NCBI GenBank assembly: GCA_900317375.1
Contig: ONGJ01000073.1
Coordinates: forward strand, 1 to 35,114
DNA from: an uncultured Eubacteriales bacterium
GTDB lineage: Bacteria > Bacillota > Clostridia > Oscillospirales > Oscillospiraceae
Direction of reading: 5' to 3'
DNA length: 35,114 nucleotides
Positions 6,384 to 28,040 of this stretch are shown in pieces; position 1 is the stretch's first letter, and each line of letters opens with the position of its first letter. The translations under genes were made by a program, and so were the position numbers. Below the pieces are notes generated by a model. The model was not told where the DNA came from. It ran no database searches and worked only from the letters and a program-made list of their open reading frames with translations.

Positions 6384-6398
6384 ACGCAGATGCCCGGG

Positions 6399-6425
6399 AA
6401 AAAAGAAAAAACCGCCTGACGGCGG
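6399..6425 (-). terminator. Intrinsic terminator on the minus strand
   Basis: Read on the minus strand: stem CCGCC / GGCGG (6425-6421 and 6416-6412) with loop GTCA, then T6, C and more T down to about 6399. It serves leftward transcription and backs up the hairpin at 6443-6497. Confidence 0.75.
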
Positions 6426-6438
6426 ACTAAAAGTGTGT

Positions 6439-6497
6439 AAAAAGAAGTAAGCCCTGACTGCAGCATAAAACGCTCAACACAATCAGGGCTTACTTCT
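6439..6497 (-). terminator. Long-stem terminator of the minus-strand transcript
   Basis: Perfect 15-bp inverted repeat, AGAAGTAAGCCCTGA at both ends (6443-6457 and complement 6483-6497), with an unusually long 25-nt loop. On the minus strand it runs directly into five T. On the + strand it could also stop transcripts from the DUF5662 gene, with ATTTTT a few bases beyond. Confidence 0.75.
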
Positions 6498-6724
6498 CTG
6501 AATTTTTCGTATCTAACATCTTTAGACCTCTCTTTCATCAGAATCATGTGCTGTGCTGAATTCTTTCCGGACTGCCTCACGTACAGCAACATCATCACTG
6601 CGGCTCGCGCATATCCCGTAAGAGGGACAAACCTGTGTGTGTCGGAGCTTCCGAACGAAGACTTTCAGCATCTCACCCGACCTGCTGTGTCGGATGAACG
6701 GAAGATAGGACTTCCTCATTTCCT
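6439..6724 (-). ncRNA. Candidate structured RNA (or small-protein mRNA), not recognised
   Basis: A leftward unit of about 286 nt. A promoter at 6731-6759 places the start near 6724, and a 15-bp hairpin with a U run ends it near 6439. The RNA folds readily by eye: hairpin 1 AUGA-GGAAG / CUUCC-gu-UCAU right at the 5' end (loop UCCUAU), CCGAC / GUCGG (loop ACAGCAG), CUUC / GAAG, UCCC / GGGA, a bulged helix AUGUUGCUGU / ACAGCACAU, then the terminator. A 65-codon ORF (6719-6522) overlaps it. Its ATG is only about five bases from the predicted start and it resembles no family I know, so RNA function is favoured. It does not fit my memory of tmRNA, SRP RNA or 6S. I could not exclude other known Firmicute RNAs such as raiA. 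Confidence 0.45.
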
Positions 6725-6730
6725 GTATTT

Positions 6731-6759
6731 ATGATACACGAAAAACAGAACACTTGCAA
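6731..6759 (-). promoter_or_regulatory. Minus-strand sigma-A promoter
   Basis: Read leftward: TTGCAA (6759-6754), 17-bp spacer, TATCAT (6736-6731). The predicted start is near 6724. Its spacing and box quality match the other promoters in the window. Confidence 0.6.
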
Positions 6760-6834
6760 GAGGAAGAATGTACAAAAATAACAAGCCGGAATTGTTGAGA
6801 ATAGCAAATTTTGTGTAGATTGCAAAAATGAGAC

Positions 6835-6863
6835 TTGACGGTTTTTCAGGAGCATAGTATGAT
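6835..6863 (+). promoter_or_regulatory. Sigma-A promoter of the LUD-domain gene
   Basis: TTGACG at 6835-6840, 17-bp spacer, TATGAT at 6858-6863. The predicted transcript starts near 6870, essentially at the base of the hairpin at 6873. Confidence 0.85.
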
Positions 6864-6872
6864 CATAAATCG

Positions 6873-6897
6873 GCGGGCGCAGCAGCGCCCGCTTTTT
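6873..6897 (+). promoter_or_regulatory. 5'-terminal hairpin plus T-run in the LUD leader
   Basis: Eight-base-pair GC stem GCGGGCGC / GCGCCCGC with loop AGCA followed by TTTTT. It has terminator form but sits within about three bases of the predicted start, where a normal elongation complex cannot yet exist. It is more likely an mRNA-stabilising 5' stem-loop, or a terminator for transcription arriving from upstream. Confidence 0.6.
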
Positions 6898-6926
6898 ACA
6901 GAAAACGGAAGGAGCCGTGAGACAAA

Positions 6927-9301: not shown

Positions 9302-9598
9302 GCGTGTGTGCGCAGGCGCATACGTATGCGTTGAAGCGGGAGATTGCTCGCAAGGCGAGGTAACTTCCGTGGAGTATGTCCGGTACCGGGAAACCGGTAC
9401 ACAATCGGGCGGCTGAAGCCTATCATTCCACGCGTATATCGCGCGGACAGGTGGCAGACCGGCTGGAACGCCGGTTTGTTTTTCGGACGCGGTCTGATAC
9501 GCACGGCTGTGTGTATGAAATCGGCTTCATGCGTACGCATCCTTAAAAAGGCGGTGCCCAATGCCGCCGCAAAGAACGTACGAAAAGGAGAAAACCAA
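9302..9598 (+). promoter_or_regulatory. Long structured 5' leader of the S10 operon with attenuator-like hairpin
   Basis: About 297 nt between the promoter and rpsJ. Visible elements: a 14-bp palindrome at 9317-9330; a 7-bp stem GTACCGG / CCGGTAC capped by a GAAA tetraloop (9383-9400); a hairpin ACCGGC / GCCGGT (9458-9475) followed by TTTGTTTTT, which has intrinsic-terminator form; a 12-bp palindrome at 9529-9540; and a stem GGCGG/CCGCC near 9550. CCGGT at 9394-9398 can pair with ACCGG at 9458-9462, so the tetraloop stem and the terminator have an alternative partner. L4-type feedback is a guess from other S10 operons. Confidence 0.65.
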
Positions 9599-27818: not shown

Positions 27819-27835
27819 ACCGACAAAGTGAATCG

Positions 27836-28001
27836 CTTGAGATAGAGGTGCGGTGTTCATCAGTACGGTCCGGCAAAGCCAGGCAGCTGCCGAACGGAAA
27901 GGGTCCGCCGCCGAAGAATCAGAGGGTGCCTGCCCGAAGGATTCTGGGCTGCATGAAAAGATCATGCAGACTGTCACAAGACTTTGTGGAGCGCTATCGA
28001 T
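27836..28001 (+). promoter_or_regulatory. Lysine riboswitch (L-box) aptamer
   Basis: P1 pairs GATAG (27841-27845) with CTATC (27994-27998). Hallmarks in order: GATAGAGGTGCG, TCATCAGTA, the conserved GCCGAAG (27910-27916), the P4-like hairpin CTGCATGA / TCATGCAG (27949-27969), and CTGTCACAAG-ACT-TTGTGGAG (P5), closing with GCGCTATC. The match to the L-box consensus is extensive. Lysine binding should favour the terminator at 28041. Confidence 0.92.
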
Positions 28002-28040
28002 GTTTACCGGAGGGCGAAAGCCAAAACCGTGTTTCCATGG

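What the first reader, a model, noticed from the sequence alone, without database searches (positions are those of the whole stretch)
6399..6759. Minus-strand promoter, foldable RNA and double terminator: possible new small RNA
In a 540-base gap a leftward TTGCAA-17-TATCAT promoter is followed by a segment with at least five hairpins, a 15-bp/25-nt-loop hairpin with U run, and a second terminator 20 bases on. No convincing protein is encoded. Size (~286 nt) and compact structure suggest a functional RNA. I could not match it to tmRNA, RNase P, SRP or 6S RNA.
Basis: partly seen in the sequence, partly recalled or inferred. Interest (0 to 1): 0.72.

Follow-up and report, generated by a model that had tools for sequence, protein, structure and literature searches.

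The report
Small RNA carrying tiny translated genes
The gap holds a small RNA gene of a family that is not in the RNA library searched; it and its relatives carry tiny genes of two to nine codons that ribosomes appear to read, so it is probably a translated RNA and not the untranslated small RNA first suspected.

Summary
The promoter, the 15-bp hairpin and the second terminator are real, and the locus is one copy of a multi-copy RNA family without an Rfam match at gathering score (permissive scans 9, 40, 41, 48). R1, a model of its 3' end, matches 74 of 81 genomes drawn from its genus, 29 of 197 from its order and 20 of 391 from its class, own genome included. But the RNA looks translated. Its conserved part is Shine-Dalgarno + AUG + a nine-codon ORF (MLDTKNSEK*, 6519-6490 minus) whose stop codon lies inside the 5' arm of the long hairpin. 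177 of 181 selected copies have 8 or 9 codons, with stops TAA 84, TGA 80, TAG 17; 11 of 16 stem pairs show double compensatory changes. 92 of 181 copies also have an upstream SD with an ORF of at most three codons; the window copy does not. One relative has three such minigenes in a row and no structured core. No downstream gene is shared. I think the RNA works by being translated, a ribosome-loading or braking RNA resembling CreT toxins in architecture. A nonapeptide mRNA is the main rival. Identity is well supported; mechanism is inferred.

The parts
6762..6778 (-). T/A-rich element TTTTTGTACATTCTTCC just upstream of the -35 box, similar to the stretch upstream of relatives' promoters
   Evidence: read; relatives' promoters; role unknown, possibly an UP element or operator (inference)
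6731..6759 (-). promoter TTGCAA-17-TATCAT
   Evidence: the near relative L002 has TTGCAA-17-TATGAT at the same place (read); family: -10 well kept, -35 weaker
6540..6724 (-). 5' leader/core of the RNA (predicted start about 6724); this copy has no 5' minigene
   Evidence: absence of an early stop read; not more stable than shuffles, but three helices with covariation among 8 relatives
6672..6698 (-). core helix 1 (6698-6689 with 6681-6672)
   Evidence: 5 of 10 pairs with changes on both sides
6554..6670 (-). core helix 2 (6670-6666 with 6558-6554)
   Evidence: 3 of 5 pairs with changes on both sides
6614..6627 (-). core hairpin TCCC-TCTTAC-GGGA, similar to the YCUCGCUUAYGRGR hairpins of relatives
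   Evidence: 2 of 4 pairs with changes on both sides, 81% of cells paired
6526..6536 (-). Shine-Dalgarno site GAAAGAGAGGT of the nine-codon ORF
   Evidence: nearly invariant in 30 aligned copies; coordinates
6490..6519 (-). ORF2: ATG TTA GAT ACG AAA AAT TCA GAG AAG TAA, MLDTKNSEK*
   Evidence: length and stop conserved in 181 selected copies
6443..6497 (-). hairpin T1 with U run; its 5' arm contains the ORF2 stop codon
   Evidence: 11 of 16 pairs with double compensatory changes in 30 copies
6412..6425 (-). second terminator T2 CCGCCGTCAGGCGG-T6
   Evidence: second terminator-like site in 90 of 176 copies

Best explanation
The locus is one copy of a new family of short, stand-alone, translated RNAs in Clostridia. 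A sigma-70-type promoter makes a transcript of about 290 nt here (roughly 120 to 500 nt in relatives, by prediction) that carries one to four strong ribosome-binding sites, each opening an ORF of only two to nine codons. The last ORF ends inside a long hairpin (about 19 bp) near the end of the RNA. My mechanism: the RNA acts through being translated. Ribosomes load at high rate, make a tri- or nonapeptide, terminate and load again, so the RNA draws initiating ribosomes and the tRNAs of the minigenes away from other mRNAs, or reports on their supply. The hairpin stabilises the 3' end, and the second terminator catches polymerases when a ribosome on the ORF2 stop keeps the hairpin open. In GC-rich hosts the second codon of ORF2 is, in the copies counted, UUA or CUA, rare leucine codons there, which could make tRNA-Leu(UAA) the limiting item. 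Shown by comparison: family, stand-alone genes, frames, starts, stops, SD sites, covarying stem, minigenes, tandem minigenes. Inferred: that it is transcribed and translated in the cell, and that the act of translation is the function.
For: Stop identity: 84 TAA, 80 TGA, 17 TAG and no TGG, where 7.5 TGG would be expected if the two varying positions were independent (P about 5e-4, copies treated as independent). ORF2 lengths: 166 of nine codons, 11 of eight, 4 longer, of 181. The start codon switches to GTG (L196) and TTG (L209, L210) and a codon is inserted after the start (L191, L194, L195), all in frame. pN/pS of codons 6-9 is 0.38. 5' minigene: 97 of 107 SD-preceded ATGs upstream of ORF2 give ORFs of at most 3 codons (81 exactly 3), against 151 of 1031 ATGs without SD. 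Minigene codons 2-3 vary while start, stop and length stay. The exact SD-minigene pattern occurs five times in 197 genomes of the order, each time just upstream of an R1 match. L191 has three tandem SD+MFR* units and then ORF2 without core; L193 has two. L173, L159 and L144 have only 45-66 nt between the two starts, so the constant part is the ORFs, not the core. No shared neighbour and mixed orientation of the next gene: 59 same strand, 77 opposite. UUA/CUA at codon 2 in 74 of 74 selected copies from loci of at least 53% GC, where they are 3.3% of Leu codons.
Against: No expression or ribosome-profiling data. Two sets of relatives (8 and 12 sequences) share cores with covarying helices, which a pure ribosome sink would not need. 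Parts of ORF2 recur across orders (MLDIKSEQK and the C-terminal K(S/N)E(Q/E)K in many copies), which favours a peptide function. UUA is not rare in AT-rich members yet is kept there (14 of 16 copies below 40% GC), so rarity may be a by-product of an A/U-rich start region. The 5' minigene was detected in only 92 of 181 copies and is absent from the window copy; the exact minigene pattern was found in 4 genomes only, against 29 with an R1 match. Distribution outside the genus is patchy (1 of 14 other genomes of its family).
Confidence: 0.38

Rival explanations
1. It is the mRNA of a functional nonapeptide (MLDIKSEQK type). Minigene(s) and core are a regulatory leader that sets translation of ORF2; the peptide acts in the cell or in cis on the ribosome.
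For: pN/pS of codons 4-9 is 0.27 and of codons 6-9 is 0.38. MLDIKSEQK recurs across orders and the C-terminal K(S/N)E(Q/E)K survives some start-codon swaps and codon insertions.
Against: Codons 4 and 6-8 are loose even inside the genus (MLDTKISKE, MLDTKIGMK, MLDIKNYE). Codon 9 and the stop lie in the stem and are constrained by pairing too. Nucleotide conservation at ATGTTAGATA exceeds what the amino acids need (codons 2-3 partly selected). Several copies per genome code different peptides.
Confidence: 0.27
2. It is a trans-acting structured regulatory RNA. The RBS-minigenes are ribosome caps that guard its ends against nucleases, as a strong SD near the 5' end does in Bacillus (STAB-SD) and the RBS of a mini-ORF does in an E. 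coli leader.
For: Covarying core helices in two sets of relatives and one covarying pair of a small pseudoknot, A-T 12 and G-C 9 with no mixed case in 21 copies. Minigenes usually sit directly after a predicted promoter. Protective SD leaders are described in the review PMC3997798 (passages seen; its reference list names the STAB-SD and mini-ORF papers) and a mini-ORF leader in PMC8708949 (passages).
Against: Copies without any core exist (L191, L173, L159) and would leave nothing to protect. The 5' part diverges strongly even between paralogues of one genome. No target is known.
Confidence: 0.2
3. It is an attenuation-type switch: a ribosome pausing at the ORF2 stop opens T1, so RNA ends at T1 or T2 depending on translation, and the two forms differ in activity.
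For: The stop codon lies in the T1 5' arm and a second terminator-like site follows in 90 of 176 copies.
Against: No conserved gene follows. Stop codons overlapping terminators are, as far as I recall, ordinary in Firmicutes.
Confidence: 0.1
4. Untranslated small RNA, as first proposed; the ORF is incidental to a conserved sequence and hairpin.
For: The stem covaries and ATGTTAGATA is conserved at nucleotide level (partly selected).
Against: Stops vary only among stop codons, 8-9-codon frame kept with 3-nt deletions, start swaps ATG/GTG/TTG, and a second set of tiny ORFs with SD upstream.
Confidence: 0.05

Closest known systems
CreT RNA toxins of CRISPR-regulated CreTA modules (PMC8501985, passages seen)
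   Same: small RNA acting by translation of a mini-ORF with strong initiation signals, rare codon(s) near the start, and a stable stem-loop downstream of the mini-ORF
   Different: the CreTs described have two consecutive rare codons and are repressed by CRISPR-derived CreA; here at most one rare codon at that place, copies kept by most genomes of a genus, up to three tandem minigenes, toxicity unknown
Leader minigenes (axe-txe and others, PMC8708949, passages seen)
   Same: two- to six-codon ORFs with an SD; short minigenes can deplete tRNA or may protect RNA by ribosome binding
   Different: those act in cis on a downstream cistron; here no downstream gene is shared and the RNA ends in terminators
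STAB-SD / ribosome-protected leaders (PMC3997798, passages seen)
   Same: strong SD near the 5' end of a Firmicute transcript
   Different: here the SD is followed by a conserved 2-3-codon ORF and a second SD-ORF lies at the 3' end
Short-ORF RNAs met in bacterial RNA-motif surveys (Downstream-peptide/yfr6 in PMC2864571, sORF and uORF candidates in PMC6429828; passages seen)
   Same: small structured or leader RNAs that encode a short conserved peptide of unknown role; the survey calls such RNAs frequent
   Different: I saw no description there of three-codon minigenes, tandem minigenes or a stop codon inside a closing hairpin; supplements were not readable
Leader peptide attenuators (TnaC, Erm leaders; recalled, not looked up)
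   Same: short ORF abutting a hairpin
   Different: no regulated gene follows
Dual-function sRNAs with an ORF (SR1, SgrS; recalled)
   Same: small RNA that also encodes a peptide
   Different: those ORFs are longer (recalled); here ORFs of 3 and 9 codons are the most constant parts and the structured core is optional

Membership tests
Any Rfam 15 family (incl. tmRNA, RNase P, SRP, 6S, raiA) | covariance-model match at the family's gathering score over the RNA | tested here: not met
   (gathering): none over the RNA, only tRNAs, Gut-1 and leaders elsewhere; (permissive): over the RNA only weak hits below gathering score, such as microRNA hairpins over T1
CreT RNA toxin | strong SD and start codon opening a mini-ORF | tested here: met
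CreT RNA toxin | two consecutive rare codons after the start | tested here: not met
   ORF2 has one rare Leu codon (UUA/CUA) at position 2 in GC-rich hosts; minigene codons vary
CreT RNA toxin | stable stem-loop downstream of the mini-ORF | tested here: met
CreT RNA toxin | adjacent CRISPR-derived creA antitoxin | not tested
   no CRISPR search was made; only shows that no neighbour family recurs often
CreT RNA toxin | growth arrest on expression | not testable with these tools
   needs bench work
Leader-peptide attenuator | regulated gene downstream on the same strand | tested here: not met
   59 same strand, 77 opposite among 136 copies (of 159) with a downstream ORF of at least 90 codons; largest neighbour cluster 7 of 257 proteins
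Micropeptide mRNA | conserved reading frame under amino-acid constraint | tested here: inconclusive
   frame kept; pN/pS 0.27-0.38 but confounded by stem and start-region constraint
Structured trans-acting RNA | conserved core structure in all members | tested here: not met
   helices covary in two sets of relatives but coreless copies exist

The most novel reading that the evidence does not exclude
A class of bacterial RNA whose job is to be translated, not to be a message for a protein: Clostridia carry chromosomal RNA genes built from one to four minigenes of two to nine codons, closed by a hairpin that overlaps the last stop codon, which act as a built-in translational brake or as a sensor of initiation and tRNA supply.
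Probability: 0.35. Interest if true: 0.85.

Novelty: new variant of a known kind. Interest (0 to 1): 0.72.

Why it matters
Annotation pipelines ignore ORFs this short, and RNA-family searches usually look for untranslated structure, so a family like this falls between the two. If the reading holds, conserved three-codon genes exist, can be repeated in tandem, and are the constant part of an RNA kept by most genomes of a genus that includes rumen MAGs (74 of 81 drawn). That makes a testable question of whether cells keep RNAs to occupy ribosomes or specific tRNAs, known so far (in what I read) from CRISPR-linked toxins and leader minigenes.

Tried and rejected
1) Known Rfam RNA: six scans, none at gathering score over the RNA. 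2) Phage, plasmid or viral origin: no match in phages or plasmids, one query each; 0 viral-contig hits for the exact SD2-ORF2 pattern. 3) Leader of a downstream gene: rejected by neighbour and orientation analysis. 4) Pairing of the 5' end with the stretch before SD2: 71 copies, mean score 11.59 against shuffled 11.55, 83 of 200 shuffles as high; rejected. 5) Energy evidence for the 5' core of the window copy: none. 6) A single alignment of 34 long copies gave no common fold; subgroups did. 7) Element seen first as repeat or MITE-like because paralogues share mainly the 3' module; set aside once frame and stops proved conserved. 8) tRNA rarity as the reason for UUA: not settled, because AT-rich members keep UUA too. 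9) Papers: no held text contains three of the peptide strings; the listings of searches showed no paper that I recognised as describing this family (one returned none); the large 2017 RNA-motif survey I wanted is not held, and supplements could not be read.

Full report
Observation. The minus strand of 6384-6926 has a promoter at 6759-6731, a predicted transcript start near 6724, a 15-bp hairpin with a 25-nt loop and U run at 6497-6443 and a second terminator at 6425-6412. The neighbours are plus-strand DUF5662 and LUD-domain genes. The fold of the whole RNA is better than shuffles (z -4.07), but so is the other strand (z -4.49), and the signal sits in the 3' module (z -6.85); the 5' part is ordinary by energy (z -0.68). 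Rfam 15 has no family over it at the gathering score, and a permissive scan gave only weak hits.

Relatives. A DNA search of 60 genomes, own included, found matches in 28, all in the own genus, with three copies in the own genome; paralogues share mainly the 3' end (about 105-145 nt; L029 also has one weaker stretch, 70% identical, elsewhere in the query). A covariance model R1 of the 3' module found the three own copies; 74 of 81 genomes drawn from the genus (28 of 31 high-quality ones) with one to seven matches each, the seven including one antisense match to the palindrome; 29 of 197 genomes drawn from the order, in 17 of 111 genera, two of them borderline (E above 1e-4); 20 of 391 drawn from the class, own included, the other 19 in other orders and two of these borderline; and in 299 drawn from the phylum only the own genome and one of the same borderline cases. 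Within its own family 1 of 14 other genomes matched (family members listed). Two focused searches, in the family of one and the order of another class-level genome, gave 9 of 16 and 9 of 28 genomes. Large searches used stricter filters that lose weak matches.

ORF2. The shared module reads AGAAAGAGAGGU-AACCAGG-AUG-UUA-GAU-(ACC/AUC/AAU)-AAG-...-UAA followed at once by the hairpin. All 31 copies first picked out in the genus loci stop after codon 8 (2) or 9 (29); L014 did not fit the expression and was left out. Of 127 pattern-selected copies in named contigs 116 have nine codons, 9 have eight and 2 have eleven; one of the 127 runs off its contig before the stop. In the largest set, 181 distinct copies, 166 have nine codons, 11 eight, 3 eleven and 1 fifteen; stops are TAA 84, TGA 80, TAG 17. 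That set was selected on an SD-like word, ATG, Leu codon 2, Asp codon 3, Lys codon 5 and a downstream hairpin, so only codons 4 and 6-9, length and stop are unselected; divergent members such as L194-L196, L201, L202, L206, L209, L210 were not in it. If the two variable stop positions were independent, 7.5 TGG would be expected; none occurs (P about 5e-4 ignoring relatedness). pN/pS is 0.27 for codons 4-9 and 0.38 for codons 6-9, counting only single-difference codon pairs and ignoring relatedness. Divergent members found later swap ATG for GTG (L196) or TTG (L209, L210) or insert a codon after the start (L191, L194, L195), all in frame.

Hairpin T1. In 30 genus copies 99.2% of cells pair, 11 of 16 pairs have double changes, and no shuffle of 500 reaches any of the five measures. 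The longest uninterrupted stem has a median of 19 bp (range 8-25) in 181 copies. The stop codon lies in the 5' arm, so a terminating ribosome should block it (inference). A second terminator-like site follows within 6-76 nt in 90 of 176 copies against 7 in a control stretch 300 nt further down.

5' minigene. In many relatives a -10 box is followed by (A)AAGGGUGAUACC-AUG-NNN-NNN-UAA, or in other orders AAAGGAAGGUACAGUCC-AUG-NNN-NNN-UAA. With a list of SD heptamers drawn up after seeing the data, but without use of ORF length, 107 SD-preceded ATGs were found upstream of ORF2; 97 open ORFs of at most three codons including ATG (2 of one, 14 of two, 81 of three; two ATGs are nested in another minigene), against 151 of 1031 ATGs without SD (Fisher P about 1e-59, relatedness ignored). 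They were found in 92 of 181 copies; in the other 89 none was detected, partly for lack of upstream sequence. The exact pattern AGGGTGATACCRATGNNNNNNTAA occurs five times, in 4 of 197 genomes of the order, and all five lie just upstream of R1 matches; most R1-positive genomes there lack this exact form. L193 has two minigenes. L191 has three tandem SD+ATG-TTC-CGG-stop units (stops TAA, TAA, TAG) followed directly by ORF2. L173, L159 and L144 have 45-66 nt between the two start codons. The window copy has no 5' minigene; I saw none in its two paralogues either (L029 and L033).

Promoters. Of 58 copies whose minigene promoter could be scanned, 43 have a -10 box with at least 5 of 6 letters and 23 a -35 box with at least 4 of 6.

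Core. Between the ORFs lies a variable stretch. Near relatives of the window copy (8 sequences) share three helices with 10 of 19 pairs doubly changed (0 of 500 shuffles); the count of further pair types is not unusual (125 of 500). Twelve members, ten from class-level genomes and two divergent named contigs, share a small pseudoknot, a long helix next to SD2 and a hairpin (7 of 20 pairs doubly changed, 1 of 500 shuffles; further pair types 58 of 500). In the pseudoknot one pair varies, and it covaries: A-T in 12, G-C in 9, mixed in 0 of 21 copies. The helices were chosen after looking at the alignments. Copies without a core exist, so the core is optional; I did not count how many have one.

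Context. Of 159 copies, 136 have a downstream ORF of at least 90 codons in the locus: 59 on the same strand and 77 on the opposite one; the largest cluster among 257 neighbour proteins has 7 members (ORFs were called by a simple script). Tandem copies about 440-900 nt apart occur in several contigs. No phage, plasmid or viral contig matched.

Codons. In 38 long ORFs of the window TTA and CTA are 3 and 2 of 666 Leu codons (I chose the ORFs by hand, so rough). Grouped by GC of the locus, codon 2 of ORF2 in the 181 selected copies is: at least 53% GC, TTA 70 and CTA 4 of 74, where TTA+CTA make 3.3% of Leu codons; 47-53%, TTA 26, CTA 4, TTG 2, CTG 2; 40-47%, TTA 50, CTA 2, TTG 3, CTT 1, CTC 1; below 40%, TTA 14, CTA 1, TTG 1 of 16, where TTA is 14%. 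The set admitted only Leu codons there. The codon is thus a rare one in GC-rich hosts, but the rule does not depend on rarity.

Mechanism. What stays constant across orders is SD sites, very short ORFs, their stops and the closing hairpin; what is loose is the minigene codons and the core. That points to translation itself as the function. The architecture is close to CreT toxins (strong SD, AUG, rare codons, stem-loop; PMC8501985, passages) and to minigenes that deplete tRNA or may shield RNA (PMC8708949, passages; PMC3997798, passages). It fails the CreT test of two consecutive rare codons. I put the brake/sink reading at 0.38, the nonapeptide mRNA at 0.27 and the ribosome-capped regulatory RNA at 0.20.

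Novelty. No Rfam family matched, no held paper contains three of the peptide strings, and the listings of searches showed nothing that I recognised as this family. RNAs with short conserved ORFs are a known kind in motif surveys (PMC2864571 and PMC6429828, passages). The searches cover only Rfam 15 and open-licence papers; the 2017 survey of RNA motifs was not held, and supplements of the human-microbiome survey PMC8040213 (passages seen) could not be read, so an unnamed candidate there cannot be excluded.

Noticed in passing
L191 (minus strand, upstream of ORF2): Three head-to-tail SD+ATG-TTC-CGG-stop minigenes before ORF2, with stops TAA, TAA, TAG.
   Followed up: partly
window 6458-6482 (T1 loop); L029, L030, L003; L018, L022, L023, L028: The T1 loop is nearly identical between paralogues of one genome or close species while the 5' part is not, and differs between species groups; GUGAAAGA or GUGUAAAGA loops recur elsewhere. 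Gene conversion or a co-evolving partner could explain it.
   Followed up: no
window 6762-6778 and upstream of relatives' promoters: Element like TTTNGTACAANATTNC just upstream of the -35 box in many copies; the plus strand near 6807-6819, ahead of the LUD gene, has a similar stretch, so it may be a general UP-like element.
   Followed up: partly
L050, L189: Gut-1 RNA (RF01706) lies within about 0.7 kb of the RNA in two loci from different orders.
   Followed up: no
L073, L095, L114, L119, L128, L148, L149, L165, L180: Two or three copies in tandem, with different leaders in those looked at.
   Followed up: no
window 27835-28004 and 9323-9404: Lysine riboswitch and S10-Clostridia leader, both above Rfam gathering score.
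   Followed up: no
L095: Two copies where the usual stop is out of frame and the next in-frame TGA two codons on ends the ORF at 11 codons.
   Followed up: no
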